Shown: positions 24,454 through 37,802 of the stretch, piece by piece
Layout of the letters: each line of letters begins with the position of its first letter
Numbering within the stretch: position 1 is the stretch's first letter
Assembly (NCBI RefSeq): GCF_028689295.1
Contig: NZ_JAQTWL010000007.1
Location: 62,001-126,000 of the forward strand
Length of the DNA stretch: 64,000 bases
Direction of reading: 5' to 3'
Origin: Rhodoferax sp.
GTDB lineage: Bacteria; Pseudomonadota; Gammaproteobacteria; Burkholderiales; Burkholderiaceae_C
The notes under the pieces: model-generated
What the model saw: the letters and a program-made list of their open reading frames with translations, nothing else
Databases searched by the model: none
Told to the model about the DNA's origin: nothing
Position numbers and translations under genes: made by a program

Positions 24454-26322
24454 ATGTGTGGCATTGTCGGCGCTGTATCCAATCACAACATCGTCCCCGT
24501 TCTGGTGCAGGGTCTGGCCAGGCTGGAATATCGGGGTTATGACTCCTGTGGTGTGGCGGTTTACGCCGATGGCCTGCAGCGTGCGCGCAGCACCGCGCGC
24601 GTGTCGGAGCTGATGGAACAAATCGACAGCACCCATCTGCAGGGAAGCACTGGCATAGCACACACCCGTTGGGCCACCCATGGCGCGCCCGCCGTGCACA
24701 ACGCGCACCCGCACTTCAGCCACGGCCCAGGCCCGGATGCCGCCAGCAGGCCCGGCTACATTGCTCTTGTGCATAACGGCATCATTGAAAACCATGACGA
24801 GCTGCGCGCCGCCTTGCAGGCCAAGGGTTACGTGTTTCAGAGTCAGACTGACACCGAGGTGATCGCCCATCTGATTGACAGCCTGTACGACGGCGACCTG
24901 TTCGAGGCCGTGAAAGCCGCACTGGGTTCATTACATGGCGCCTATGCCATTGCGGTGTTTTGCAAAGACGAGCCGCACCGCCTCATTGGCGCCAGAGCCG
25001 GCTCGCCGCTGATTCTGGGCGTGGGGCCAGACGGCCAGTCGCACTACCTGGCCAGCGATGCCATGGCTCTGGCCGGAGTCACCGACCAGATTGTTTACCT
25101 GGAAGAAGGTGATGTGGCTGACATTCAGCTGGGCAAATACTGGCTGGTCGACAAAGCCTTCAAGCCGCTCACGCCAGCGCAGCGCCCGGTCAAAACGGTG
25201 CATGCCCACAGTGGCGCAGCCGAGCTGGGGCCGTACCGCCACTACATGCAAAAAGAGATTTTCGAGCAGCCACGCGCCATTGCCGACACCCTGGAAGGTG
25301 TCACCCACATCATGCCGGAGCTGTTTGACGGCGCCGACACCAGCGCAGCGCGGGTCTTCAAGGACATCGACGCGGTGCTGATCCTGGCTTGCGGCACCAG
25401 TTACTACAGCGGCTGCACCGCCAAGTACTGGCTGGAAAGCATCGCGAAAATCCCGACCCAGGTCGAAGTGGCCAGTGAATACCGTTACCGCGACTCGGTG
25501 CCGAATGCGCGCACCTTGGTGGTCACCATCACCCAGTCGGGCGAGACCGCTGACACCCTCGCGGCCCTGCGTCACGCACAAAGCCTGGGCATGAAACACA
25601 CGCTGACCATCTGCAACGTGGCCACCAGCGCCATGGTGCGCGAATGCGAGCTGGCCTACATCACCCGCGCCGGTGTCGAGATCGGCGTGGCCTCCACCAA
25701 AGCCTTCACCGCCCAGTTGGCAGGCCTGTTCTTGTTGGTGCTGGCGCTGACGCAATCACGCGGCCTGCTCAGCGCGTCAGAGGAAGCACGCCACATCAAG
25801 GCCATGCGCCACCTACCGGCCGCCCTGCAGGCCGTGCTGGCGCTCGAGCCCCAGGTGATCGCCTGGTCACAGGACTTTGCCGCCAAGGAAAACGCGCTGT
25901 TTCTGGGCCGTGGCCTGCATTACCCGATTGCCCTCGAAGGCGCCCTCAAGCTCAAGGAAATCAGCTACATCCACGCCGAAGCCTACCCGGCAGGCGAGCT
26001 CAAACACGGACCACTCGCCCTGGTCACCAGTGCCATGCCGGTGGTCACCGTGGCGCCCAACGATGCGCTGCTGGAAAAGCTCAAAAGCAACATGCACGAA
26101 GTGCGCGCCCGCGGCGGCGTGCTGTATGTGCTGGCAGATGCCGATTCGCACATTGAAAGCAGCGAGGGTGTGCACGTGATCCGCATGCCAGAGCACTACG
26201 GCGAACTCTCGCCCATGCTGCATGTGGTGCCACTGCAATTGCTGGCCTACCACACCGCCTGCGCGCGCGGGACGGATGTGGACAAACCGCGTAACCTGGC
26301 CAAGTCGGTCACGGTGGAGTAA
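24454..26322 (+). CDS. glmS: Glutamine--fructose-6-phosphate aminotransferase (isomerizing)
   Basis: GlmS makes glucosamine-6-phosphate, the first step of amino-sugar synthesis. The 622-residue protein starts MCGIVGAV, with Cys2 as glutaminase nucleophile, has the HTRWATHG loop, and two SIS domains ([56 protein letters not shown]). ATG 24454 has an upstream AGGAG. It ends KSVTVE. An 11.5 kb island is integrated exactly at the last codons; the stop TAA is supplied across the junction and the protein sequence is unaltered. Confidence 0.97.
26303..26321. repeat. Left attachment site (attL), 3' end of glmS
   Basis: The sequence AGTCGGTCACGGTGGAGTA within the last glmS codons matches 37784-37802 at 18 of 19 positions, with the last 14 bases (26308-26321) identical. 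It marks the left crossover region of the island. Confidence 0.9.
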
Positions 26323-26324
26323 TC

Positions 26325-26338
26325 TCGCTTTTACCATT
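26325..26338. repeat. Left terminal inverted repeat of the island
   Basis: TCGCTTTTACCATT is the exact reverse complement of 37766-37779. It begins three bases inside the attL core and is a likely arm or binding site for the island recombinase. Confidence 0.85.
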
Positions 26339-26401
26339 TCAAGGCTTCAAAGTTCCGCCACACACTGCCTCAATTTTAGGTTGCAGATCAAGACCAAGGC
26401 A

Positions 26402-26752
26402 TTGTCCTTGGTCCACCTTGACCCTGCCCATCAAAACCTCATTGACCGCATCCTGAAGCTCCATCAGGACGGTCTGAACAGCCGCCAAATAGCGGACCAC
26501 CTGAATGATCTTGGGACCACTTCGTGGACCGGGAGGCGGTTCTATCCAGAGTTAGTCTTTGGATTGATCAAGAAGACGAAGATGAGAGTACAACGGGAAG
26601 TGTCAGCAATTGCGGAGATGCGTTGCCAGTTGCGTCCAACCGGAACAAATCCGATCAATGGAACTCAATATTCGCCTGGAAGCATCAGCACCCACTGCTC
26701 CCCATCCCAACAGGCGTACAAAACCTGCTCAGGTAGCGGAAAGTCGGTGTAG
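26402..26752 (+). CDS. Small protein with serine-recombinase-like helical domain (possible remnant)
   Basis: The frame encodes about 116 residues if begun at TTG 26402. Residues from LIDRILKLHQDGLNSRQIADHLNDLG to GRRFYPELVFGLIKK resemble the helical Recombinase region that follows the catalytic domain in large serine recombinases, or similar small phage proteins. No catalytic resolvase domain is present. No ATG start with a good ribosome binding site is seen. The last 88 bases overlap the 3' end of the DUF6876 gene on the other strand. It could be a real small DNA-binding protein or a decayed recombinase. Confidence 0.4.
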   Translation: MSLVHLDPAHQNLIDRILKLHQDGLNSRQIADHLNDLGTTSWTGRRFYPELVFGLIKKTKMRVQREVSAIAEMRCQLRPTGTNPINGTQYSPGSISTHCSPSQQAYKTCSGSGKSV

Positions 26753-27021
26753 GGGATTTGCTGACTGGCACGCACGTTTCCGTTGCCATCTTCAAGCGTC
26801 AGCAAAGCCGCTGAATCACTGACAACAAGCCTAACCAATACAAACCAGTCCGTTGTGCCCAACTCCAGCAGGTAGCTGGCGACGGCATCAAACAACCAGA
26901 AAGAACCAGTTTCATCAGCGAGGTATTTGGCGCCGTCGGTGATCAAACACCGACGGCTCAGGCGGTAGGACCGCTCAGTTCCGGTGAACTGAGCCAAAGT
27001 TGTTGGATCGAACGCCATCAT
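26665..27021 (-). CDS. DUF6876 family protein
   Basis: This protein of about 118 residues has the DUF6876 pattern: AQFTGTERSYRL, CLITDGAKYLADETGSFWLFDAVASY, FVLVRLVVSDSAALLTLEDGNG and a final YACWDGEQWVLMLPGEY. Proteins of this family are common on plasmids and islands and have no assigned function. The start could be ATG 27021 or 27018. It lies nine bases after the preceding unknown gene and ends the minus-strand run at the left end of the island. Confidence 0.7.
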   Translation of the reverse strand: MMAFDPTTLAQFTGTERSYRLSRRCLITDGAKYLADETGSFWLFDAVASYLLELGTTDWFVLVRLVVSDSAALLTLEDGNGNVRASQQIPYTDFPLPEQVLYACWDGEQWVLMLPGEY

Positions 27022-27030
27022 CAGACCCAA

Positions 27031-27363
27031 TTAAGCGGATGTTTTGGCTGGTTTCAGTTTGCAGAGTTTGTCGAGCAATTCCATTGCTACCGAATCACCG
27101 GATTCGATGAGTAAAGCAATACGTCGCATCACTAGCCGGGATTTTTGACTATTACCCTTCGATAGTTCCCGCAAAACAGTAGGCGAGATGGATGCATTAT
27201 TATTCAGCTTGACCTTAATCGTGTCGATGTGAGTCTTGATGGTTTTCTCACATGCCATCAGCGCTATATCAACTTCAGCCAATGTCAGTTGACCAATTGA
27301 TGTAGACTTTTCTTTCGGCAATTTTACAGTCGTCTCTGCTTTGCTATCTGCTGTGTCATTCAT
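27031..27363 (-). CDS. Hypothetical protein, island-encoded
   Basis: The 110-residue product is not recognised. It is hydrophilic, without signal or membrane segments, with a predicted helical middle (LTLAEVDIALMACEKTIKTHIDTIKV) and a Ser/Lys-rich part (ELSKGNSQKSRLVMRRIALL). The ATG at 27363 has a strong GGAGG five bases upstream, which fixes the start and argues that it is translated. It is part of the minus-strand operon with the RHH and DUF6876 genes. Confidence 0.65.
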   Translation of the reverse strand: MNDTADSKAETTVKLPKEKSTSIGQLTLAEVDIALMACEKTIKTHIDTIKVKLNNNASISPTVLRELSKGNSQKSRLVMRRIALLIESGDSVAMELLDKLCKLKPAKTSA

Positions 27364-27505
27364 GGAAACCTCCAAATTTGAAATAAACGCCATCGAAATA
27401 ACAGCGTCCGTTGATCATATTTGGATGCAGAATATATGTAAGTTAAAAATCTACTGATCCAAAAGTGAAACCAAAAGTCAACTGAATTAGTAGAGATTGA
27501 GAATG

Positions 27506-27664
27506 TCAGCTTAGCTTAATCACAATAATACTGAGTCCAGAAGAAGGATCGGTGGCATATGAAAAATCTCTTGCTGTTGATTGCCTAATAACATTCAACA
27601 GTCTTTCCTTGCTGATTTTTGTGCCAGATTTTTCAATAGTCTTGATTGCGTCTTTATTGTTCAT
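27506..27664 (-). CDS. Small 52-residue protein, island-encoded
   Basis: This short gene starts ATG at 27664 with a strong GGAGG six bases upstream and ends TGA at 27506. The product begins MNNKDAIKTIEKSGTKISKE and ends SIIVIKLS. It lies 12 bases downstream of the ribbon-helix-helix gene, so it is probably translated from the same transcript. No family is recognised. It might act with the RHH protein as a small partner. Confidence 0.55.
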   Translation of the reverse strand: MNNKDAIKTIEKSGTKISKERLLNVIRQSTARDFSYATDPSSGLSIIVIKLS

Positions 27665-27676
27665 TATTTCCTCCGT

Positions 27677-27874
27677 TTAGTACATTTCTTCTTTCACGCG
27701 TTCAATATTCTCATCGTTGTTCCAATTAGAACGAATGAAAGCATTCAACGCATAACGAGCAACTGATGACCTTTTGTGTCCAAGACGATGGCATAGCTCG
27801 TCAAATCTATTGGTGAAATCTTGTGTTGCGCGGAAACCAACAACTTGATTCCGTTCAGGTGTGAATATTTCCAT
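27677..27874 (-). CDS. Ribbon-helix-helix-like small DNA-binding protein
   Basis: The 65-residue protein has a CopG/MetJ-like pattern: a short strand with VVGFRATQDFTNRFDELCHRLG, then KRSSVARYALNAFIRSNW. That is the beta-alpha-alpha shape of ribbon-helix-helix regulators, often seen as plasmid copy-control proteins or antitoxins. ATG 27874 has an AGGAG six bases upstream. The HUH-like gene precedes it by 29 bases and the 52-residue gene follows by 12, so it may autoregulate this replication-like operon. Confidence 0.6.
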   Translation of the reverse strand: MEIFTPERNQVVGFRATQDFTNRFDELCHRLGHKRSSVARYALNAFIRSNWNNDENIERVKEEMY

Positions 27875-27903
27875 GTCGTTCTCCTATCTGATTTGTTTCA
27901 CAT

Positions 27904-28434
27904 CTATTTATTGGATCGCTTAATGTGGGTCAAATCCTTGCCTTTGGCGCTATAAACAAGCCAACTGATTGTTTCACCTGTCCGGATTGGCTCCATTAGG
28001 ACAGAAGACACAATACTAATTGACTGAAAATCTTTCGTAAGCCGTGGACTTAATTTCTGCTCTACTTCATCCCACACACGATTTGTCATGCTTGTCGGAA
28101 TTAGTAATATTGCATGAACATGATGCGGATGTCTTTTGTCAGCAAATGATTTCTTCAAACTAGATTCTTCGAATTCGTAATAGCAACCGAATTCATGAAC
28201 CACAATCAATTCCTTAGCATGCCGACAAAGTCGCTTATTCACCTTCCAAACCACTTTGTGTTTGTACTGATCTAACCAATAGTCCGGTCTTGGAACAGAC
28301 CCGGAGGCTTTGAATACAGCAGTTATTGCAAAGGGAGTCCAATCCTTTCTCATTGACTCTATCCATTCACTCTCTGCGTTCAGTAAAGTTTCTTTAGTTG
28401 GTATTATTAGGTCTGTTGGTATTAATTCAATCAT
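27904..28434 (-). CDS. Candidate HUH/rolling-circle Rep-like protein
   Basis: The 176-residue protein has a segment HPHHVHAILLIP (residues 102-113) that fits the metal-binding His-x-His motif of HUH endonucleases. It also has a hydrophobic strand WTPFAITAVFK near residues 32-42 like motif 1, and WLVYSAKGKD near residues 158-167 with a Tyr-x-x-Lys like the catalytic motif 3 of rolling-circle Rep proteins. The order and spacing fit, but no search was possible. Start ATG 28434 has an AAGGA ribosome binding site. Linkage to an RHH protein and a clamp-loader-like ATPase suggests a role in excised-element replication or nicking. Confidence 0.5.
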   Translation of the reverse strand: MIELIPTDLIIPTKETLLNAESEWIESMRKDWTPFAITAVFKASGSVPRPDYWLDQYKHKVVWKVNKRLCRHAKELIVVHEFGCYYEFEESSLKKSFADKRHPHHVHAILLIPTSMTNRVWDEVEQKLSPRLTKDFQSISIVSSVLMEPIRTGETISWLVYSAKGKDLTHIKRSNK

Positions 28435-28464
28435 TATTGATCCTTATCGGTTATGTAACAAAGG

Positions 28465-28527
28465 TCATACCCAGTAAAGGGCATCCAGGAAAACTTCCCG
28501 CGTAATCAAGACGTCATTGAAGTGCAT
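28465..28527 (-). CDS. Possible 20-residue leader ORF upstream of the HUH-like gene
   Basis: An ATG at 28527 with AGGA eight bases upstream opens a 20-codon frame ending at TGA 28465, 31 bases before the HUH-like start. The short product has a mixed composition (MHFNDVLITREVFLDALYWV). It could be a leader peptide or a chance frame. Confidence 0.25.
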   Translation of the reverse strand: MHFNDVLITREVFLDALYWV

Positions 28528-28593
28528 GTCGCTGTCCTGATAAGACCCGACATGTCCATCTATTTATACGTGTGTAAAACCGTGAAAATTCGG

Positions 28594-28618
28594 AAAAAAA
28601 AGCCCGCGACTAGCGGGC
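28594..28618 (-). terminator. Rho-independent terminator after the AAA ATPase gene
   Basis: On the minus strand GCCCGC pairs with GCGGGC across a 5-base loop (28602-28618) and is followed by eight T residues (28594-28601). It lies about 30 bases past the clamp-loader-like gene stop and should end that transcript. Confidence 0.85.
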
Positions 28619-28646
28619 AAATTGATGGTCACTGAAGAATGCAAAG

Positions 28647-29282
28647 TCAATCCAATATTGGCTCGTTCATCAGTTCATATTGCATTGTCTTAATCATGCT
28701 CCTAATGTCAGGAAAACACTGTCGAACAACGCTTTTCAAGAATGCTTCCTCTACCTCAGGATAATCTTCTCTAGTTGCTATTACCCTCAGCCGATCCAAA
28801 AGTGCTTGTTTGAATTCGGAAGATGCCATGAAGTCAAAGGCAACCAGATGAAATCTGGACTTAACAGCAACACTCAACCGTTGCGGTTCATTGGCGGTCA
28901 TGATGAAGCAGTTGTTGGAAGAATACTCTTCCACCAATCCCCTCAAGGCTGCCTGAGCATCCTTTGACAAATAGTCTGCCTCATCCAGCACAACTACCCG
29001 TCTCGCGCCCGAGAAGGTCAAGGCGGAGCAGGTGCGCTCTAAGTTCCGCACCATTTCGATTGAATTCTTCATGGTACAGTTAATGAATAAGGTTTCGTCT
29101 GGATTGATTAATTTGGCGACGGTAGTTTTTCCACAACCTGGCTTGCCGTAGAACATTAGTGACATGCCACCTTTATCAGATACCAATTTGCGGAGCCGTG
29201 TTGCCAGCGCTGGTGGTAATACTAAGTCGTCAAATTTAGTGGGGCGGTACTTTTGTGCCCAATCAAGTTCGTTCATTTTCAT
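28647..29282 (-). CDS. Clamp-loader (RFC/gp44)-like AAA+ ATPase
   Basis: This 211-residue ATPase begins DWAQKYRPTKFDDLVLP, the signature opening of clamp-loader small subunits. It has Walker A GKPGCGKT (46-53), Walker B VVVLDEAD (96-103), sensor 1 in FIMTANEPQRL, and KSRF at 141-144 in the place of the SRC arginine-finger motif. It is shorter than RFC or gp44 (about 320), so most of the C-terminal collar domain is missing. ATG 29282 has an AAGGAG. It follows the upstream unknown gene by 13 bases and precedes a strong terminator. No sliding clamp is recognised in the island. Confidence 0.8.
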   Translation of the reverse strand: MKMNELDWAQKYRPTKFDDLVLPPALATRLRKLVSDKGGMSLMFYGKPGCGKTTVAKLINPDETLFINCTMKNSIEMVRNLERTCSALTFSGARRVVVLDEADYLSKDAQAALRGLVEEYSSNNCFIMTANEPQRLSVAVKSRFHLVAFDFMASSEFKQALLDRLRVIATREDYPEVEEAFLKSVVRQCFPDIRSMIKTMQYELMNEPILD

Positions 29283-29295
29283 CTTTGTCTCCTTC

Positions 29296-29931
29296 TTATG
29301 CTGCCAATGCCTGGGGCGTATCGTTGAGGATGTCCTGCAACGATTCGCTTTCTTCGACCTCAAAGTTGATCTCCTTCAATTCTTTCAAGATGCGTTTGAG
29401 TTTCTTACTGACCGCGTCATCAGGGCAATTTGGCAGTCGAACTTTGAAGCTAAATTCGTTGACTGTTCCATTTGGAACAACGTCGATGACAGCATCATCG
29501 GCGAGCACTGCCTTGGGTTTGCTTTGGGAGGATAGACCCAACTTTTCCCTAACGTTTGTTCCAGCGAGGCACGGGTTAATTACGCCCTCGTCGATCTTCG
29601 ACGCGAATGAGTCATCGCTCATCGTTGCGATATGGTAAACAGTAGTCCATGTGTTGGGCAGCTTGTCGGCATTCGCAATCAGCTGGTCATATTTGCTTCC
29701 AATTTGGATAAATTTCCGTATCGTTGATGACTCTGACTTGTAGCCAATGAGCTCACAGAACTTCTCAAATTCAGACTTGATCCCCTTTGCCTTCATGTCT
29801 GAAACGACTTTCCCCATACGCAGGACTGATTCAGCGGTCTTCCTTGCATAACCATTGAATTTTGCTGCCATTTCGTTGGCACGAGGTGGTTCATTCAAAT
29901 CTATTAAATTGCTAGTAACAAGTGCATTCAT
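29296..29931 (-). CDS. Hypothetical protein upstream of the clamp-loader-like ATPase
   Basis: The protein of about 211 residues is not firmly recognised. A segment of about residues 30-90 (YARKTAESVLRMGKVVSDMKAK, then FEKFCELIGYKSESSTIRKFIQIG) is like DUF3102 and other phage or plasmid DNA-associated proteins with a helix-turn-helix flavour. The C-terminal part is acidic (EVEESESLQDILND). It is the first gene of an operon with the ATPase. Starts at 29943 or 29931 are possible. Its reading frame contains one copy (29464-29478) of an inverted repeat also found in front of the divergent gene at 30099. Confidence 0.6.
   Translation of the reverse strand: MNALVTSNLIDLNEPPRANEMAAKFNGYARKTAESVLRMGKVVSDMKAKGIKSEFEKFCELIGYKSESSTIRKFIQIGSKYDQLIANADKLPNTWTTVYHIATMSDDSFASKIDEGVINPCLAGTNVREKLGLSSQSKPKAVLADDAVIDVVPNGTVNEFSFKVRLPNCPDDAVSKKLKRILKELKEINFEVEESESLQDILNDTPQALAA
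29464..29478. repeat. Inverted repeat copy 1 (intragenic)
   Basis: TGTTCCATTTGGAAC, with GTTCC and GGAAC arms around ATTT, is identical over 15 bases to 30077-30091. This copy lies within the coding sequence of the hypothetical protein at 29296-29931. Confidence 0.6.
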
Positions 29932-30076
29932 GATAATTTCCATTTCTAAAAAAGTTAAGTTAAACTGTTGATTTATAAAGACCTTTTCCTCTATCTCTCA
30001 ACAGTTCCTATTTTATAGATTTCACACTTTTTTCCGACTGCTTAGATAATTGCTGCATATAAAGTGTTAGCATATC

Positions 30077-30091
30077 TGTTCCATTTGGAAC
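30077..30091. promoter_or_regulatory. Inverted repeat copy 2, candidate operator over a ribosome binding site
   Basis: TGTTCCATTTGGAAC lies between the divergent genes at 29931 and 30099 and its second arm contains the likely ribosome binding site GGA of the plus-strand gene. A protein binding here could block both transcription and translation. The second identical copy is at 29464-29478. Confidence 0.5.
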
Positions 30092-30098
30092 GGTGAAA

Positions 30099-30830
30099 AT
30101 GAAGAAATCTGACAACTCCCGGCACTTCCCATATAAGCACCCGACTTTTGGCACCAAGCACAAACCAAAAGCTAAGTCTGCTTGGGAGGGGTCTGTGTAT
30201 TACTGGTGGTGGCAGCACTTGCGGCGCAATCAGGACTATCTTGAGACTTGCGCCAATGATGGGCATGGCAAGCTGGAAGCGACTTACAAAGAGTTCGGGG
30301 ATGTACGCAGTGATGACTTCAAAGCGTGGTGGTCAGACGGTGGTCGTGGCGGTCACTTGTTTGCGAACCCTCGTGCGGAGGACTCAATAAGGGTGCTTGG
30401 ACTGAACGAGGCAGCGCTAGGCAGCGAAGAAGCCCTGACCGTGAGTATTCCATTGAATCTGCCTCGCAAAATGATTGAGCAGCGACTAAAGCAGCTTCTC
30501 GATACACATCACACGGGCAAACGTGGGCATCAATTGGCGAAGAAGAGCACGGCTAGGTTTCGTGTCCACGGTCAACCTAACGTGCCGGCACTGGCGCAGG
30601 GACTTTTGGTTTATGACGCTGTGATCAAAGCAGCGGGATCTTCCCCAAAGACTCCGCATTGGAAAATTGCAACCGACTTGAAGATTGTTCCCCTGGAGCA
30701 GCGCGTATTGGCGAAAGATACAGATGCCGAAAAGACCGACAAGAAGAGGATTCTGACGATCACGGTCAGCCGCTATATGAGGCGGGTACAGGAGTCGATT
30801 CGACGTGCTGGGGAAGGAGTTTTTCCTTAG
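30099..30830 (+). CDS. Conserved hypothetical protein of integrative elements
   Basis: The 243-residue basic protein is not assigned to a named family. It has an aromatic segment SVYYWWWQHLRRNQDYLETC (about residues 30-50), then FGDVRSDDFKAWWSDGGRGGHLF and a helical C-terminus that ends RYMRRVQESIRRAGEGVF. Proteins with this layout are seen on integrative elements. A DNA-related role is likely but unproved. ATG 30099 was chosen over GTG 30093 because of spacing from the ribosome binding site. It is divergent from the ATPase operon. Confidence 0.6.
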   Translation: MKKSDNSRHFPYKHPTFGTKHKPKAKSAWEGSVYYWWWQHLRRNQDYLETCANDGHGKLEATYKEFGDVRSDDFKAWWSDGGRGGHLFANPRAEDSIRVLGLNEAALGSEEALTVSIPLNLPRKMIEQRLKQLLDTHHTGKRGHQLAKKSTARFRVHGQPNVPALAQGLLVYDAVIKAAGSSPKTPHWKIATDLKIVPLEQRVLAKDTDAEKTDKKRILTITVSRYMRRVQESIRRAGEGVFP

Positions 30831-31129
30831 GGCTCGTCTTGAAGTCTTATTTCCACTTGCTGGATTCCAGAAGTTCGGCTTTGCCTCGAGGCAATGACTG
30901 CCTGAAATCCTGCCAGTTTCAGTCACACATCAACTGTCGACTTCGTCCATATAGCTTCACATGCGGCAAGCATTACACCCAGAAAACAAGGAAAAAGCGA
31001 ATTTTTCTGACGATTTTGAGCATCCATGACTACAAACATTGTCTACAGACTACACAAAGCTCCTATGTACTGTACAAAACCAAAATGCAGTGCTACGATT
31101 GCATTTCAAACTTGTTGAAAGGACATGAA
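30831..31129. other. Gene-free region with palindromes upstream of the defence-like operon
   Basis: No convincing gene is seen. A 14-base perfect palindrome TTGCCTCGAGGCAA is at 30881-30894, and CTGAAA/TTTCAG arms are at 30902-30907 and 30917-30922. A possible promoter is TTGTCT (31039-31044) with TATGTA (31064-31069), spaced 19 bases, and the palindrome TGTACTGTACA (31066-31076) overlaps its -10. This is probably the control region for the genes at 31130-35170. Confidence 0.5.
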
Positions 31130-31354
31130 ATGAGCGAAAAACGTCAAAAATTTGTTGAGCTCGCTGAAAAGAGAGTGACGAGAGCAATCAAGGATTTGCG
31201 TTTGATCGGGAATTTGTCGAACAGAAACAACTACACCTATTCAGACTCAGATGTACAAAAAATCGTCTCGGCACTTGACATGGAGGTGAAAAATCTAAAA
31301 TCGAAGTTCGCTACCGATGACGGAAAAGCAGTGCAAGTATTCAAACTTCAATAA
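31130..31354 (+). CDS. Small 74-residue protein of the GHKL ATPase/methyltransferase operon
   Basis: The small, charged, helical protein reads RQKFVELAEKRVTRAIKDLRLIGNLSNR at the start and then has a segment YTYSDSDVQKIVSALDMEVKNLKSKF. A similar small protein is familiar beside R-M and GHKL-ATPase genes, but I cannot name a family. ATG 31130 has an AAAGGA upstream. The ATPase gene starts 23 bases after its stop, so the pair is probably co-transcribed. A regulatory or complex-partner role is an inference. Confidence 0.65.
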   Translation: MSEKRQKFVELAEKRVTRAIKDLRLIGNLSNRNNYTYSDSDVQKIVSALDMEVKNLKSKFATDDGKAVQVFKLQ

Positions 31355-31377
31355 TTTAATCTTAAAAGGGAGCGCGT

Positions 31378-33759
31378 ATGGAAGAAAAATTATCAAGAAA
31401 AATTGCGGAGCAGATGCTCGCAGCTCATTCAGCCGACGATATCAAGGCGATCATTTCCGACACCGAGTTGGACTATTGGTTCTCTGCCGATAGCAATTGG
31501 AAGCCCTACGGTGGTCGGGAAAAGAACTGGGACACAGTTGGCAACCAGCAGGCAAATGCTGTAGGCTCGTTGGTGGAGTTGATTACCAACGCTGTGGACG
31601 CAATACTCCAGCGTAAGGCTCGTGAAGCTGGATTAGTGAATTTTCGAAGCGCAGAAGCACCCCAGTCGATGTTTGAAGCAGTTAAAAGGTACTTTCCCCA
31701 TGTGGTGGAAGGAAGAATAGCCAACCTTGGTGCGAAGCAACGAACAGAGCTCGCTGAAAAGTGCGTGATCATTGGTGTCAAACGAGCCAGTCGTATCAAT
31801 AGCAAATATCCTACATACACGATCCTTGACCGCGGAGACGGTCAGCTCCCTGATGATTTTCCAAATACATTCTTGTCCTTAAGCGAACGCAATAAAGAGG
31901 GAATTCCATTTGTGCAAGGTAAATTCAATATGGGTAGCACTGGAAGTCTCCGATTCTGTACGTCGGCGAATATAAATCTTGGGCATTACAAACTATTAAT
32001 ATCAAAGCATCCTGGACAGAACTATTGGGGCTGGACTCTAATTAGGGTACGAAAGCACCGCGCGGGTGAATCTCTGCCAGTTGCTGAGTATTTTTGCCCG
32101 GGTGGACAAATACCACGATTCAGATCAGAAACTTTGCAAGGACTTGGACATCCAACGATCGGAGTCGTATCTGATGGGACAATAATTAAACTTTATGAAT
32201 ATGATGTCGGCGCACCAGCACATACCGTGGACATTGGTTTGTATGATGCATTGACAGTAAGCCTAGTCGACTGTGCACTGCCAGTCCGTGTTTATGACTT
32301 TGACGCTAAACCTGTCGATAACAAAGGAGACTTGCGAAAAGAGGGAATCGCAGCTCGAACGTTTAGTGGGATGAATGCAACCCTCGTAAATGAAGCTGAG
32401 GAGAGTTCCGATGACGGGGTTATCGTTGGCGCCAAAGACACTGAATGGCAACATTTGGTACTTGAAGACAAGACGGAGGACTTAGGGGTAATTAAGATAG
32501 TGGCAACAGGTGTAAAAAAACTTAAAGACTACCTCCTAAAACAACCCGCGCGAGTATTTTATACAGTAAATGGACAAAGGCATGCTGTTGAGCGCGCTAG
32601 CTTTTTGAATACAAGAGTTGGTCTGGGGGATATACGAAATCACGTAATCATTAACGTAATCTGCGATCGAATGGATACAACGGCATTATCTAATATATTC
32701 ATGCCGGACAGAGAAAGGAAGGTTGATAATAATCAATCTCGTCAACTTGAAGAAACTGTGATCAATGCTCTTCGAAATGACGACAAGCTTCGTGCTTATG
32801 CAGCTGAAATTAGATTGCGTAGGGCTACAGAATATGTTGATGAGACAGAAGAGTCCAAGGAACTTCTGGAAGAGCTTGTAAAATCTGACCCAGATATTAA
32901 AGAACTGTTTGGGCTAGGTGCAATGTTGCCTGAAATTACGCATGTTCCAGGCGGTGGAATCATTTTTGAAGGGAAAAAATTTCCAACAATTCTTGTGCCG
33001 TTAAATTTGAAACCTGAGGGCAAATTGCTGGTTAAAGAAGTGCCAATAAATGCAACGCGAAAAATTGAATGTGGTACTGATGCTGAAAACGAATATCTTT
33101 CTAGAATTGACTCTCCAGGTGAAACATGGTGTTCGTTGACGCCTGACTTGATGCCGCACAGTGTTAAGGTGCGCAATGGAACTGCGACATTCACTATCAA
33201 AGTTCCCAACTCAGCGAAGGTTGGTGATACCTGCCAAGTTGAGTTTGGCTTCGTGGACAATGGTAGAAATGTAGAGCCGCTCAAATTTGGTGTGTTGATA
33301 CGTTACACCGAGGCAGAGGTTTCGAATTCCAAAAAAGGCGGAAATAAGACTGATACCAAGGCTAAAGTTGCTGACAGTCTTGCTTTACCGAAATTTGATT
33401 GGGTTGATCAGGCAGATTGGGATAACCATAGTTTTGATGAGAATTCGGGTGCATACGTAGCCGTAGGCGATAGCACAGTAGTTTATATAAATAGAGATAA
33501 CAAGTCACTTCGGTACATGCGCGTCAAGGAAAAGGATGAGGCTGCGCGTCAAGTGTTCGAAACAATGTTTAAGTATGGTTTGGGTATATTTGCACTATCT
33601 ATCCACCGAAAAGCCACTTTAGCGAGTGAGCACAATGCTGCCGAAGGTCAATCTCATTCAGGCGACATAGAGGAAACGGTGCGTGTTGCGTCAGACGGTA
33701 TTGCTGCACACATAATAACCGTCATCAAGCGACTCGGAGGCGGAGACCTAGCAAAATAA
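31378..33759 (+). CDS. GHKL (HSP90/MutL/MORC-type) ATPase, candidate defence effector or modulator
   Basis: The 793-residue protein has a Bergerat-fold ATPase at its N-terminus. The N box is VELITNAVD (Glu68, Asn71, Asp74), the G1 box is LDRGDGQ (151-155) and the G2 box is GKFNMGSTGS (181-190). Catalytic residues are all present. The middle resembles the transducer domain of GHL proteins. Residues near 590-650 look like an Ig-like beta domain (VGDTCQVEFGFVDNGRN). No nuclease motif is recognised. GHL ATPases of the MutL/MORC group are known components of prokaryotic R-M-type systems. ATG 31378 follows a GGGAG. It is flanked by a small protein gene and a cytosine methyltransferase. Confidence 0.85.
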   Translation: MEEKLSRKIAEQMLAAHSADDIKAIISDTELDYWFSADSNWKPYGGREKNWDTVGNQQANAVGSLVELITNAVDAILQRKAREAGLVNFRSAEAPQSMFEAVKRYFPHVVEGRIANLGAKQRTELAEKCVIIGVKRASRINSKYPTYTILDRGDGQLPDDFPNTFLSLSERNKEGIPFVQGKFNMGSTGSLRFCTSANINLGHYKLLISKHPGQNYWGWTLIRVRKHRAGESLPVAEYFCPGGQIPRFRSETLQGLGHPTIGVVSDGTIIKLYEYDVGAPAHTVDIGLYDALTVSLVDCALPVRVYDFDAKPVDNKGDLRKEGIAARTFSGMNATLVNEAEESSDDGVIVGAKDTEWQHLVLEDKTEDLGVIKIVATGVKKLKDYLLKQPARVFYTVNGQRHAVERASFLNTRVGLGDIRNHVIINVICDRMDTTALSNIFMPDRERKVDNNQSRQLEETVINALRNDDKLRAYAAEIRLRRATEYVDETEESKELLEELVKSDPDIKELFGLGAMLPEITHVPGGGIIFEGKKFPTILVPLNLKPEGKLLVKEVPINATRKIECGTDAENEYLSRIDSPGETWCSLTPDLMPHSVKVRNGTATFTIKVPNSAKVGDTCQVEFGFVDNGRNVEPLKFGVLIRYTEAEVSNSKKGGNKTDTKAKVADSLALPKFDWVDQADWDNHSFDENSGAYVAVGDSTVVYINRDNKSLRYMRVKEKDEAARQVFETMFKYGLGIFALSIHRKATLASEHNAAEGQSHSGDIEETVRVASDGIAAHIITVIKRLGGGDLAK

Positions 33760-34003
33760 TGCTGCCCCGTAAGGGGCAACCTAGCATGATGAATTTGGCA
33801 GCATTGAGCGATTCCACGTAGACGTTTGTGGGGGGCTTTGGGTGCTTGCCACCTCGGTGGTTTCGAACGCGTGCCTTGCGAAGTGTGAGTTCGACCATGG
33901 GGATCGCTTTGTTGCACTAGAATCGGCGTACCCGGTCACGTGCGTGGATCGAGGCTTCGTCGCCCTTAGCGTTCACCAATACTGAGCTGAATTTAACTTG
34001 ACT
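33760..34003. other. Spacer between the GHKL ATPase and methyltransferase genes
   Basis: Four bases after the ATPase stop, TGCCCC and GGGGCA (33763-33768 and 33773-33778) form a short hairpin with a 4-base loop and no T-run. The rest is more GC-rich than the flanking genes. A frame of about 67 codons is open on the plus strand from 33783 but lacks a good start. It may hold the methyltransferase promoter or a decayed gene. Confidence 0.4.
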
Positions 34004-35170
34004 ATGAACTCTATTCCTGTTGTTGCCATAGATTTTTTCTGTGGAGCTGGTGGAATGACTAACGGACTGATCCAAGCGGGGATCCACGTTCTTGGTGGAG
34101 TTGACAATCAGCCGCTTTGCGAGCGGACGTACGTACAAAATAAAAATCCCGACGGAACAAATCCAGCATATATTTGTAAAGATATTTTTCCAAAGACTAG
34201 GTCTCACCCCAACGGACAGCAGCATGAAATTCGAGACGCAATTGAAGTTGCTATTCGGAACTTTAAGCGACTGCATGGTATTCGTAAGGTAAAGCTGGTT
34301 TTTGCAATATGCGCGCCATGCCAGCCGTTTACGAAGATAACGAAAATTGAGATGTCCGAAGGTCGCCAGTTCAAGCGAAAAAATGATGCCAATCTGTTGA
34401 CTACGACATTGGCATTAATTAAGGAGTTTAGACCTGCAGCGTTAATTTGTGAAAACGTTGAAGGTATGATTGGTAAAACTGAGGATTCTGTACTTGGAGG
34501 ATTCAAGCGTACTTTGAAGAGGAATGGCTATTCATTCCAAGCCAAGGTAATCAACGCATCTAAGTTTGGTGTACCACAAAATCGTCGTCGAACCATTGGT
34601 ATTGGTATCGATGCAAGAGTTTATCCGGGTGAAATTGAAGTGCCTGAGATGGATGAAGAACGTGATGGAATTGTCACTGTATCCGAGGCAATCGGTCATC
34701 TGCCGGCGCTTGCCGCTGGCGATGTTGATCCATTCGATCCAAACCACAGGGCGCGAGCTCTTTCGCCACTTAATTTAAAAAGAATAGCTAGCGCCCCACC
34801 TGGAGGAAGTAATGCTTACCTCTCCAATACTCCGTATGGTGACTTGACTTTGGATTGCCATAATCGATTAGAAGAAAAATCGGGTACGCGGTCATTTAGC
34901 GACGTCTATACACGTTTGAGTGGATCTGCTTTAGCACCTACTATAACGACCAAGTGTGTTTCAGTTAGCAATGGTAGATTTGCGCACTACGATCTTCGGC
35001 AGAATAGAGGTTTGACACCTCGTGAGGCTGCGTTACTCCAGACATTTCCAGAAGAATATATTTTTTATCCGGAAGACAATATACAGTTCTCAGCAATTGT
35101 AATTGGTAATGCTGTACCACCAAGACTAGCGGCTTACTTTGGAAACGCGATCATCAGAGCAATTGAATAG
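34004..35170 (+). CDS. DNA (cytosine-5-)-methyltransferase
   Basis: The 388-residue enzyme has all the ordered motifs of C5 cytosine methyltransferases: motif I DFFCGAGG (10-17), the catalytic PCQ loop with Cys106 in APCQPF, ENV (150-152), QNRRR (192-196) and a C-terminal GNAVPP. The target-recognition region lies between QNRRR and GNAVPP. It should methylate cytosine in a specific, unknown sequence. No cognate restriction endonuclease or Vsr gene is adjacent; the GHKL ATPase upstream is the only likely partner. The start could also be TTG 33998. Confidence 0.93.
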   Translation: MNSIPVVAIDFFCGAGGMTNGLIQAGIHVLGGVDNQPLCERTYVQNKNPDGTNPAYICKDIFPKTRSHPNGQQHEIRDAIEVAIRNFKRLHGIRKVKLVFAICAPCQPFTKITKIEMSEGRQFKRKNDANLLTTTLALIKEFRPAALICENVEGMIGKTEDSVLGGFKRTLKRNGYSFQAKVINASKFGVPQNRRRTIGIGIDARVYPGEIEVPEMDEERDGIVTVSEAIGHLPALAAGDVDPFDPNHRARALSPLNLKRIASAPPGGSNAYLSNTPYGDLTLDCHNRLEEKSGTRSFSDVYTRLSGSALAPTITTKCVSVSNGRFAHYDLRQNRGLTPREAALLQTFPEEYIFYPEDNIQFSAIVIGNAVPPRLAAYFGNAIIRAIE

Positions 35171-35497
35171 ATTGCGATGATTAAATGTGACTTGTTGTGG
35201 TTTGTCTAGCCGCAGCGCAGCAGTATTCGACTGAACTGATGTCAGGTACTGTCTGTTGACATGACCTTATTTTCCAAATGCGTACCGGCATTTGAGAATA
35301 CCCGGATCGCGCTCAACGATCTTCATCAAATGAAAGCCAAAGGCGATCTTTTGACTAAATTCATTATAGAATTACTAAAATATAATCAGACACTCTAAAT
35401 TATTGATCTAAAAGGGAATTTGAGTCGACGGTAACAATGTACATATTCATCTCGTTTTAATAAAATGGCATTTGGCATTTTTATAATGGGATAAATT
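35171..35497. other. AT-rich intergenic region before the recombinases
   Basis: The region separates the methyltransferase and integrase genes. It has a TATAAT at 35482-35487, close to the integrase start (35498), but no well-spaced -35 was identified. An open frame of 45 codons starts at 35261 but shows no ribosome binding site and no family likeness. No clear terminator is seen. Confidence 0.45.
35261..35398 (+). CDS. Doubtful 45-residue small ORF
   Basis: ATG 35261 opens a 45-codon frame ending TAA 35398, product starting MTLFSKCVPAFENTRI. The composition is protein-like, with a helical C-terminus, but there is no clear ribosome binding site and the bases before the ATG read TTGACA, which could instead be a promoter element. 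It is listed only because it is the sole candidate gene in this gap. Confidence 0.25.
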   Translation: MTLFSKCVPAFENTRIALNDLHQMKAKGDLLTKFIIELLKYNQTL

Positions 35498-36100
35498 ATG
35501 GCACTTGGTAAGCAAGCAAAAGTTTTGACCAAACAGCAAGCGGATGGTCTTTACCTATCCTTGGAACTAACAAGGGAACCCGAGCGTAACCGTCTCATCT
35601 TTCTGCTGTCGGTAAAGGCAGGTCTTCGCGCCAAAGAGATTGCGGGATTAACTTGGTCCATGGTGGTGGATGCGTCTGGGTTAATTGCTGAACAGATTTC
35701 TTTAGAGAATATTGCATCCAAGGGTAAATCTGGTCGCACCATCCCGATCAACAAGCATTTGAAAGGTGATCTTGAGGAGCACCTTTGTCGTGCTTTGCGA
35801 CGGTGTTCATTGAGCGACCTTCTGCAGCAGAGGATCGTACAGACACAACGTGGAAGTGCTACCAGTGCTCAGGTTGTCGTAAACATGTTCAAAGGGTGGT
35901 ACGCTAAAGCAGGGTTAGTTGGTTGTTCATCCCACAGCGGTCGAAGGACGTTCATTACGAATGCAGCAAAAAAGATATCCACCGTTGGCGGTTCCCTTAG
36001 AGACGTGCAGTGGTTGGCAGGGCACAGCAGTCTTCAAACTACTCAGCGATACATTGACGGTGATAGTGACGCTCGGCGAAAGGTAGTAGACCTTGTCTGA
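35498..36100 (+). CDS. Minimal tyrosine recombinase (integrase)
   Basis: The 200-residue protein is essentially only the catalytic domain of a phage-type integrase. All six catalytic positions are visible: Arg44 (GLRAKE), Lys75 (ASKGKSG), His146 and Arg149 (HSGRR), His176 (AGHSSLQTTQRY) and Tyr185. The N-terminal core-binding domain of larger integrases is missing. It is the probable integrase for insertion at glmS. Its stop codon lies inside the start of the large serine recombinase (8-base overlap), so both are translated together. Confidence 0.9.
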   Translation: MALGKQAKVLTKQQADGLYLSLELTREPERNRLIFLLSVKAGLRAKEIAGLTWSMVVDASGLIAEQISLENIASKGKSGRTIPINKHLKGDLEEHLCRALRRCSLSDLLQQRIVQTQRGSATSAQVVVNMFKGWYAKAGLVGCSSHSGRRTFITNAAKKISTVGGSLRDVQWLAGHSSLQTTQRYIDGDSDARRKVVDLV

Positions 36101-37763
36101 CATCCTTCACATCTACACAAGGGTATCAACCGCAGTACAAGCGGACGAAGGTATGTCCTTGGACTTTCAGCGTGAACTGGGGGAGAAGCGTGCCAAGGAC
36201 CTTGGTTTCGATTTCAAAGTTTGGAACGAAGGCGGCAAATCTTCCAATCACGAAGAAATCGACAAGCGACCCGTGTTGTCGCAACTGCTGACGGAAATTC
36301 AACGTGGGGCGGTCAAGCACCTGTTTGTGTATGACCAGTCTCGCCTATCCCGTAACGATTACGTCAGCTCCATTTTTCGATACGAGTGCAACAAGCACGG
36401 CGTCACCCTTTACAACAAGGAAGGCAAGTACGACCTTGCAAACCCTCAGGACCAATTTCTAAAGCAAATTCTTGATGCCGTTGGGCAGTTTGACAACGCC
36501 CAGCGAACCGAGCGGACACGACTTGGCAAATTGGCGCGGATTCGGCAAGGATATTGGCTAGGGGGACCACCTCCGTACGGATACGAAATTAAAGACCGGA
36601 AACTGGTGGTCAATGAAAATGAATCCAAATGGATCAGGGTGATCTTCGAACGGTATGCTGATCGAGTTCCACTGATGGATATCAAGGCAGAGTTGGATCG
36701 CAATGGCGTTGAACCGAGGCGGAAGAGAGGAACTTGGACACTTGGGTCATTACAAGCGCTGCTGCGCAATTCCCATTATGTAGGGCACTATGACTTTAAG
36801 GATGGGAAAAGTGGCGAGGAAATCCGCACTGACTGCCCACCAATTCTTTCAGCAGACCTTTGGACACGAGTTCAGGCAACCCGTGAACAAAACATGGTTC
36901 ATCGAAGTGCTACTAACCCGGTCAAACATTTCTACTTGCTGAAAACCATCCTTCGTTGTGGTCATTGCGGGACGTGGATGTCCGGTATCTATTCAGAGCA
37001 TCAGAGCAAAAATCACTACTACTGTCCAAAAAAGGAAAGGCAGTGGAGGAAGTTCCAGATCCCGGATGATGAAAAGTGGAAGCGTGGTCGGGTGTGTGAG
37101 ATGACAAGATCATTGAACCTTGCAGCGACAGACGATCTTGTGTGGAATGCTGTCCTTGATGCTTTGTCAAAGAGTTCACTGATTAAAGAGGCAGTAAAAA
37201 GAGATGCCTTGGGCGAGGGTGGTCAACGTCTGAAAGCGTCAGATCACGAAGTCAAAGTTTCCACCAATAGGGTACGTCAGTTGAAAAAGACCCTGGCGAA
37301 GAGCGAGGACAGTCTGACTGATTTGGAAGCGGAACGCTTGATGGGGCGCATCACACCAGCTCAATATCCAAAAATCAAGGAAACCATCACCAAAGAAACA
37401 CTCCAAATCAAAGCGGAAATTGAGCGTCTTGAGGCATTTGTCGCCGGCGTTCAGCAACAGAAAAGTTGGATTGATTGGGTTGGTAAATTCCGGAAAAAAA
37501 TCGACGCTTACAAAAGTTTTACCCCAGAGCAGAAAAAAGAACTGCTACAGGGACTGGTGACCGTGATCGATGTTCACCTGATAGACAACCAGACACATTG
37601 GTTAGAGGTGCAGTTTCAGTTGCCGTTGGTTGATGACAATATTGAGCACTTGGATGTCACCAAGAAATCGGGATACGCTGTAAAGGACGGCACAAACGCA
37701 CTCATGATTGAAATGAACTCACGCCCCTATGCCAAAAAAAAGTCGTTGCAATCAATGGGTTAG
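36093..37763 (+). CDS. Large serine recombinase
   Basis: This 556-residue protein starts TTG and begins with the resolvase catalytic motif YTRVST, Ser12 being the nucleophile, followed by the catalytic domain to about residue 150. A Recombinase helical domain comes next (ERYADRVPLMDIKAELDRNG), then a zinc ribbon (LRCGHCG, then YYCP) and a coiled coil (QLKKTLAKSEDSLTDLEAER through about residue 450). This is the layout of phage integrases of the serine type. It overlaps the tyrosine recombinase gene. Its stop lies three bases before the right inverted repeat of the island, which is typical of an integrase gene next to att. Confidence 0.93.
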   Translation: MSDILHIYTRVSTAVQADEGMSLDFQRELGEKRAKDLGFDFKVWNEGGKSSNHEEIDKRPVLSQLLTEIQRGAVKHLFVYDQSRLSRNDYVSSIFRYECNKHGVTLYNKEGKYDLANPQDQFLKQILDAVGQFDNAQRTERTRLGKLARIRQGYWLGGPPPYGYEIKDRKLVVNENESKWIRVIFERYADRVPLMDIKAELDRNGVEPRRKRGTWTLGSLQALLRNSHYVGHYDFKDGKSGEEIRTDCPPILSADLWTRVQATREQNMVHRSATNPVKHFYLLKTILRCGHCGTWMSGIYSEHQSKNHYYCPKKERQWRKFQIPDDEKWKRGRVCEMTRSLNLAATDDLVWNAVLDALSKSSLIKEAVKRDALGEGGQRLKASDHEVKVSTNRVRQLKKTLAKSEDSLTDLEAERLMGRITPAQYPKIKETITKETLQIKAEIERLEAFVAGVQQQKSWIDWVGKFRKKIDAYKSFTPEQKKELLQGLVTVIDVHLIDNQTHWLEVQFQLPLVDDNIEHLDVTKKSGYAVKDGTNALMIEMNSRPYAKKKSLQSMG

Positions 37764-37765
37764 CG

Positions 37766-37779
37766 AATGGTAAAAGCGA
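37766..37779. repeat. Right terminal inverted repeat of the island
   Basis: AATGGTAAAAGCGA is the exact reverse complement of 26325-26338. It starts three bases after the serine recombinase stop codon and ends four bases before the extended attR repeat. Confidence 0.85.
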
Positions 37780-37783
37780 CATC

Positions 37784-37802
37784 AGTCAGTCACGGTGGAG
37801 TA
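37784..37802. repeat. Right attachment site (attR)
   Basis: The sequence matches the end of glmS at 26303-26321 at 18 of 19 positions, with GTCACGGTGGAGTA (37789-37802) identical. The base after it makes GAG TAG, the predicted original glmS stop codon. Confidence 0.9.

What the first reader, a model, noticed from the sequence alone, without database searches (positions are those of the whole stretch)
31130..35170. Candidate defence or modification system: small protein + GHKL ATPase + cytosine-5 methyltransferase
Seen directly: a 74-residue charged protein, a 793-residue protein with complete Bergerat-fold ATPase motifs (Glu68/Asn71/Asp74, LDRGDGQ, GKFNMGSTGS), and an intact C5 methyltransferase follow one another on an integrative island. 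Known: GHL ATPases of the MutL/MORC type are found in prokaryotic restriction-modification-type clusters. Inferred: the ATPase, perhaps with the small protein, acts on unmodified DNA while the methyltransferase protects the host. No nuclease or helicase motif is recognisable, so how invading DNA would be blocked is unclear, which makes the system unusual. The Ig-like middle domain of the ATPase is also uncommon. An orphan methyltransferase beside an unrelated ATPase is the alternative.
Basis: partly seen in the sequence, partly recalled or inferred. Interest (0 to 1): 0.85.

Follow-up and report, generated by a model that had tools for sequence, protein, structure and literature searches.

The report
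Small-protein, MORC-like ATPase, cytosine-methyltransferase module
A mobile island carries three intact genes that look like a DNA-marking defence module without a recognisable cutting enzyme, and the tiny first protein turns out to be a shared partner of several families of MORC-like ATPases.

Summary
Observation confirmed: SP (74 aa), a 793-aa GHKL ATPase and a C5 methyltransferase are intact and consecutive at 31130-35170, on an 11.5-kb low-GC island inserted at glmS. The ATPase has a broad family (138 relatives) that PADLOC, NCBIfam and PHROGs do not recognise. AlphaFold2/Foldseek give an Hsp90/MORC/topoisomerase-VI-B-like module; no nuclease is among the 50 matches shown. In the ATPase's own clade a C5 methyltransferase is adjacent in 9 of 9 rows; other clades have an N4/N6 methyltransferase, and 44 of 81 rows show neither by my profiles. 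Vsr endonuclease (fragments included) occurs in 8 of 14 C5 rows and 0 of 23 amino-methyltransferase rows, and is missing or broken in much of the window's clade: more likely 5mC repair than effector. The unexpected result concerns SP: in four phyla, 20 of 22 assessable SP genes have a GHKL gene downstream in an apparent operon, of several families without significant mutual similarity, one fitting paraMORC2. Best reading: a paraMORC-type, modification-linked defence module, probably acting by ATP-driven DNA clamping rather than cutting, with SP as a general adaptor or controller. Defence itself is untested.

The parts
26308..37802 (.). integrative island, bounded by a 14-bp direct repeat (26308-26321 and 37789-37802) with a 14-bp inverted repeat just inside (26325-26338 and 37766-37779); left end at the 3' end of glmS
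   Evidence: glmS named through
31066..31076 (.). TGTACTGTACA palindrome upstream of SP, possible operator; its 5-bp arms are not above chance on their own
   Evidence: palindromes upstream of SP as a set exceed GC-matched controls
31130..31354 (+). SP, 74-aa protein, predicted two-helix hairpin with a disordered tail that ends in a conserved F-x-L; shared partner of GHKL ATPases
31378..33759 (+). GHKL (MORC/Hsp90/topoisomerase VI-B-like) ATPase, 793 aa
31378..32907 (+). GHKL ATPase plus transducer half, residues about 1-510
33364..33738 (+). [quoted passage not shown] W681, N705, D707, N708 nearly invariant
33760..33997 (+). 238-bp gap where L001, L005, L006 (and L003, split) carry a Vsr endonuclease gene; no Vsr remnant found here
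33998..35170 (+). DNA cytosine-5 methyltransferase (ATG at 34004)
35498..36100 (+). tyrosine recombinase, catalytic part only (200 aa)
36093..37763 (+). large serine recombinase

Best explanation
A mobile, modification-linked DNA defence module of the paraMORC kind. The C5 methyltransferase marks host DNA (inferred from the family). The GHKL ATPase, a dimerising ATP-driven clamp by analogy with MORC, Hsp90 and topoisomerase VI-B (fold predicted, action inferred), is loaded with or controlled by SP and acts on unmarked DNA. As no dedicated nuclease is conserved with it, the likeliest action is topological entrapment or compaction that blocks replication or transcription, not cleavage. The Vsr endonuclease in relatives repairs T:G mismatches caused by the C5 methyltransferase and is dispensable; the window copy lacks it, and the genome has another C5 MTase with a Vsr nearby on another contig.
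For: A C5 MTase is adjacent in 9 of 9 rows of the window's clade; the label 'kind of MTase' needs 8 changes on the ATPase tree against a shuffled mean of 31.7, as low in 0 of 200. ATPase profile searches: 3 of 396 genomes of the own phylum and 3 of 200 of the own family, own genome shared, so 5 distinct genomes; all 5 have SP and a C5 or amino-MTase beside the ATPase. AlphaFold2 mean pLDDT 86.8; Foldseek best matches are Hsp90, topoisomerase VI-B, MORC2/3 and SMCHD1, no nuclease in the 50 shown. Vsr tracks C5 MTase: 8 of 14 rows (fragments included) against 0 of 23 amino-MTase and 0 of 44 other rows; Fisher p 7.8e-5 for the first two (rows are related, so the p is optimistic). In the 9-row clade Vsr is intact in 3, cut by a contig end in 1, split in 1, a fragment in 1, not found in 3, while the MTase persists. 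MORC2 is reported as a DNA compaction machine (PMC12216690, title and start of abstract in the listing).
Against: No phage or methylation experiment. 44 of 81 rows have no C5/amino-MTase by my profiles, 19 of them with at least 4 kb on both sides. SP is absent from 4 of the 9 rows of the window's own clade and from 57 of all 81. PADLOC knows no member (2 stray weak hits in 60). The clamp step rests on analogy only. The C-terminal domain was not searched on its own, so a new nuclease fold is not excluded. No model of an SP-ATPase complex was made.
Confidence: 0.45

Rival explanations
1. A MutL/Vsr-like nicking restriction system: the ATPase recruits Vsr to unmethylated sites and Vsr is the cutting effector; the window copy has lost its nuclease or borrows the Vsr encoded elsewhere in the genome.
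For: Vsr lies between ATPase and C5 MTase in L001, L005, L006 and (split) L003; Iyer 2008 (PMC2292703, section 3 parts 1-2 of 4 read) puts Vsr-family nucleases in MORC and paraMORC neighbourhoods; own genome has a Vsr at C21:113500.
Against: Vsr in 0 of 23 amino-MTase rows; missing or broken in several close relatives that keep ATPase and MTase; the HEF_HK study treats Vsr as 5mC-deamination repair (PMC8011034, passages seen).
Confidence: 0.15
2. Not defence: the ATPase and SP organise or maintain the mobile island or its DNA, and the methyltransferase is a regulatory or orphan enzyme kept beside it.
For: Many ATPase relatives have no recognised methyltransferase nearby; the module is on an integrative island; SP homologues also occur without a recognised GHKL gene in viral contigs and once in a conjugative region.
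Against: Clade-wise pairing with chemically different DNA methyltransferases; SP is paired with several GHKL families, often beside C5 MTase and Vsr genes.
Confidence: 0.2
3. SP is only a transcriptional controller of the operon (like C proteins or CapS), and the ATPase works alone or with an effector encoded elsewhere, for example as an abortive-infection switch.
For: SP is the first gene; palindromes upstream of SP exceed GC-matched controls (50 of 51 upstream regions used: mean arm 6.8 against 5.8, p 4e-4; arms of 7 or more in 20 against 11.8 expected, p 0.006); in relatives the same upstream slot holds other genes, several of them CopG/wHTH-, HTH- or VapBC-like, mostly judged by eye.
Against: AlphaFold2 gives a two-helix hairpin with no PDB match; Vsr lies between SP and the GHKL gene in L133 without breaking the set. 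The window's own palindrome is no longer than chance.
Confidence: 0.15

Closest known systems
MORC and paraMORC ATPases in prokaryotic restriction-modification neighbourhoods (Iyer, Abhiman and Aravind 2008, PMC2292703; section 3 parts 1-2 of 4 and passages read)
   Same: GHKL plus transducer ATPase next to C5 or amino DNA methyltransferases and Vsr; patchy distribution
   Different: no SF2 helicase or REase recognised beside this one; the ATPase lacks the MORC signature and the paraMORC2 ExxxH; 'small protein' does not occur in that paper's text (figures not held)
HEF_HK / Response_reg_2 pairs with C5 MTase and Vsr (PMC8011034; abstract, outline and passages seen)
   Same: GHKL protein linked to C5 methylases and Vsr
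   Different: none of 60 family members hits PF19191 at E 0.01; no response-regulator-like gene recognised here
Dcm-Vsr-MutL very short patch repair of E. coli (recalled)
   Same: C5 methyltransferase, Vsr in relatives, GHKL ATPase
   Different: ATPase is not MutL by Pfam or NCBIfam; Vsr is absent in this copy
Type I Shedu with N-terminal GHKL domain, VcSduA (PMC12137116, passages seen)
   Same: GHKL ATPase thought to control a defence effector
   Different: VcSduA has a fused nuclease; none recognised here
[not shown]
   Same: GHKL protein in a defence operon (recalled)

Membership tests
MORC family (Iyer 2008) | GHKL ATPase plus S5-type transducer | tested here: met
   AlphaFold2 model and Foldseek to Hsp90, topo VI-B, MORC2/3, SMCHD1; by sequence Pfam HATPase_c_3 is only sub-threshold
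MORC family (Iyer 2008) | GhXhhpXXRhl motif in the S5 domain | tested here: not met
   equivalent stretch, placed by eye, reads G-I-x-F-T-x-N-G-Q; the place of R is Q in 76 of 77 rows
paraMORC2 | conserved ExxxH in the C-terminal part of S5 | tested here: not met
   the only column with H in at least 70% of rows is 402 (65 of 77), four after N398 (74 of 77), not E. By contrast the other SP-linked family B has invariant E395 and H399 in all 16 aligned, so B fits paraMORC2
paraMORC3 | C-terminal restriction-endonuclease-fold domain | tested here: inconclusive
   no nuclease in Pfam hits of 60 members or in the 50 Foldseek rows shown; C-terminal domain alone not searched
paraMORC4 | C-terminal TIR domain | tested here: not met
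   no TIR hit in 60 members
[quoted passage not shown]
   a two-domain extension exists but no paraMORC1 sequence was compared
paraMORC5 | conserved HxH in the C-terminal domain | tested here: not met
   no column of the C-terminal domain has H in 70% of rows
HEF_HK (PF19191) | hit to the Pfam model | tested here: not met
   no hit in the 60 members scanned at E 0.01
C5 DNA methyltransferase | PF00145 and catalytic motifs | tested here: met
   E 1.1e-43, 150 bits, cut-off 22; motifs by eye
Type II restriction-modification system | cognate restriction endonuclease beside the methyltransferase | tested here: not met
   no restriction nuclease among the ten island proteins scanned
Known anti-phage system (PADLOC-DB 2.0.0) | model hit for ATPase or SP | tested here: not met
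   none for window SP and ATPase; 2 stray weak hits in 60 ATPases
Anti-phage defence | reduced phage plating or plasmid entry | not testable with these tools
   needs bench work

The most novel reading that the evidence does not exclude
SP defines an unnamed family of about 74-aa adaptor proteins that serves several distinct families of MORC-like GHKL ATPases across bacteria and at least one archaeon (L076), and together they form nuclease-free, methylation-gated systems that silence foreign DNA by ATP-driven clamping, a prokaryotic counterpart of eukaryotic MORC silencing; solitary SP genes in phages would be counter-defence decoys.
Probability: 0.15. Interest if true: 0.9.

Novelty: new variant of a known kind. 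Interest (0 to 1): 0.62.

Why it matters
Prokaryotic MORC and paraMORC ATPases were predicted in 2008 to be restriction components; in my searches of the held library the only experimental relative I met was the GHKL-nuclease fusion of a Shedu system. A compact three-gene set without a recognised nuclease is a simple form in which to test whether such ATPases restrict DNA by clamping, as eukaryotic MORCs silence transposons. SP offers a small marker gene that finds GHKL systems of several families at once, including families that Pfam and PADLOC hardly see.

Tried and rejected
Vsr remnant in the window's gap: tblastn of relatives' Vsr on the stretch gave nothing better than E 8; the gap is single-copy in the genome. 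ATPase as a sequence relative of a solved structure: nothing convincing. SP as a known fold: no convincing PDB sequence match and no Foldseek match. SP and CapS the same: rejected, CapS is STAS-wHTH (PMC13373217, passages seen). Family A and family B as one family: hhalign aligns the two N-boxes but with E 0.012 and probability 3.7%. A shared operator upstream of SP: the palindromes differ, some merely contain a -35-like TTGACA. Empty insertion site beside katG in relatives: not found in 12 loci, one of them the own genome, whose stretches end about 1.5 kb past the match.

Limits of counts: I gave 137 of the 230 neighbour proteins listed, and only 25 of 173 matched families were shown (N6_Mtase in 2 members), so single methyltransferases there may be hidden. 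Of 14 plasmid records with SP I opened 6. Family B was scanned with Pfam in 3 of 16 members. Papers: PMC2292703 section 3 parts 1-2 of 4 and passages; PMC8011034 abstract, outline and passages; PMC12137116, PMC9523054, PMC3710099, PMC13373217 passages; PMC12839542 searched for GHKL, MORC, Vsr, HSP90 without a hit; PMC12216690 listing only. I saw no description of SP in the listings; that is not proof of absence.
Full report
Observation. The catalytic Glu is residue 67. The island is real: GC falls to 0.41-0.49 against about 0.62 outside, and a 14-bp direct repeat lies at 26308-26321 and 37789-37802 with a 14-bp inverted repeat just inside; 2 of 500 mononucleotide shuffles of the two border stretches shared any 14-mer. 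The right neighbour looks like katG (recalled, no call).

The ATPase family. No PADLOC, NCBIfam or PHROGs model matches the window ATPase at E 0.01 and Pfam HATPase_c_3 does so only below its cut-off; over 60 relatives PADLOC gives two stray hits and HATPase_c_3 matches 7. A genome scan found 138 relatives, 80 kept, in many bacterial phyla and in archaea. ATP-binding motifs are invariant in 77 aligned members. The AlphaFold2 model (mean pLDDT 86.8, pTM 0.75) shows an ATPase-transducer half, a strand-rich domain and an alpha/beta end; Foldseek ranks Hsp90, topoisomerase VI-B, MORC and SMCHD1 among the 50 matches shown.

The methyltransferase partner. Of 81 rows (80 loci plus window), 14 have a C5 methyltransferase within 6 kb, 23 an N4/N6 type, in 19 of the 23 convergent and directly after the ATPase, and 44 neither by my profiles; many flanks are short, and among rows with at least 4 kb on both sides the counts are 9, 7 and 19. 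The label is clustered on the ATPase tree (8 changes, shuffled mean 31.7, as low in 0 of 200), and the window sits in a starred 9-row clade that is C5 throughout. Searching genomes with the ATPase profile gave 3 of 396 of the own phylum and 3 of 200 of the own family, 5 distinct genomes in all; every one has SP and a methyltransferase beside the ATPase, one of them with the ATPase split into two frames.

Vsr. Between ATPase and methyltransferase, L001, L005 and L006 encode a Vsr endonuclease (PF03852, E 1.3e-21 for L006); L003 has it in two frames, L004 shows only fragments, L007 has it after the methyltransferase at a contig end, and in L002, L008 and the window none was found. Vsr, fragments included, is found in 8 of 14 C5 rows, 0 of 23 amino-methyltransferase rows and 0 of 44 others. 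That fits repair of deaminated 5-methylcytosine and argues against Vsr as the effector. The host genome has a second C5 methyltransferase with a Vsr about 0.4 kb further on contig 21.

SP, the unexpected part. SP is upstream of the ATPase in 24 of 81 rows. Plasmid SP homologues (6 of 14 records opened) precede large proteins that the ATPase profile does not hit but that carry GHKL motifs by eye. An SP profile then gave 9 of 398 genomes of the own phylum, 4 of 348 from the phylum of L032 (Bacillota), 6 of 296 from that of L040 (Bacteroidota) and 3 of 246 from that of L051 (Actinomycetota): 23 places, 22 assessable (L139 ends at the contig edge). In 20 of 22 a GHKL gene lies downstream on the same strand, 17 directly next, 3 after one or two genes (L133 with Vsr between, L165, L166). 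The exceptions are L158 (conjugative region) and L164 (SP beside a GIY-YIG-like gene and a type III-like Mod/Res pair). The 20 comprise 7 of the window's family, 9 of family B, 2 of family C (Pfam HATPase_c just above cut-off for L129) and 2 others. Family B has invariant N-box and G-box residues and an invariant ExxxH, the mark of paraMORC2 in Iyer 2008; it is followed by a ~280-aa protein and, where named, a DUF6339 protein, and 5 of its 9 genome loci have both C5 methyltransferase and Vsr genes alongside. GHKL identity of family B and of L165 rests on motifs, and that of L166 on motifs and a sub-threshold Pfam match: Pfam gives no hit for the 3 family B members scanned, and hhalign between families is not significant. 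The profile seeds were mostly SPs found beside family A, so finding families B and C this way is not circular; 6 seeds came from the plasmid records. In viral contigs 26 SP homologues were found; 5 (L101, L102, L104, L105, L107) have a GHKL gene downstream, L100 has a C5 methyltransferase (by eye) before the contig ends, others are cut short, and many show no GHKL motif in the held flanks; 3 of 6 such phage copies scanned match phrog_35258, unknown function. AlphaFold2 makes SP a two-helix hairpin with a disordered tail; in the alignment the tail ends in a conserved F-x-L. No PDB relative was found.

Mechanism and limits. Shown: gene content, intactness, predicted fold, partner statistics. Inferred: methylation marks self; the ATPase clamps or compacts unmarked DNA; SP loads, targets or controls it. 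MORC2 is reported to compact DNA (PMC12216690, listing). The alternatives (Vsr effector, non-defence role, SP as mere transcriptional controller) are not excluded, and palindromes upstream of SP (p 4e-4 against GC-matched upstream regions) keep the last one alive.

Verdict. The finding is a new variant of a known kind, paraMORC-type systems, with one feature that I did not find described in the papers I could search: a small protein shared by several families of GHKL ATPases.

Noticed in passing
L106, L108-L111, L113-L115, L117, L119, L120, L122, L124, L125: SP homologues in viral contigs with no GHKL motif seen in the held flanks; PHROGs name a helicase (L106), a terminase (L122) and an anti-restriction protein (L108) as neighbours. 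Could be counter-defence or phage replication factors.
   Followed up: partly
L006, L009, L012, L034, L035, L049, just upstream of the ATPase: A PIN-like (VapC-like) gene, in some with an AbrB/VapB-like gene, occupies the slot that SP holds elsewhere (cluster; mostly judged by eye).
   Followed up: partly
L164:2062-7808: SP beside a GIY-YIG-like gene and a type III-like Mod/Res pair, with no GHKL gene seen.
   Followed up: no
L165:2365-7588: SP followed by a 904-aa protein with RNA polymerase alpha-CTD and sigma-70 region 4 domains, a 201-aa protein and a GHKL-motif protein: an odd four-gene set.
   Followed up: no
window 28650-29363 (-): Island-borne clamp-loader small subunit (RFC/phage type, phrog_168 E 1.1e-48), unusual cargo for an integrative element.
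   Followed up: no
window 26308-26338 and 37766-37802: Island ends: 14-bp direct repeat of the 3' end of glmS plus a 14-bp inverted repeat, with a serine and a partial tyrosine recombinase encoded at the right end.
   Followed up: partly
L187:9236-11275: A second, different GHKL-like gene (679 aa, by eye) directly after a split relative of the ATPase.
   Followed up: no
L038, L048, L080 upstream of SP: A fusion of about 840 aa of a C5 methyltransferase and an Eco57I-like N6-adenine methyltransferase precedes SP and the ATPase (Pfam run for L038 and L080).
   Followed up: partly
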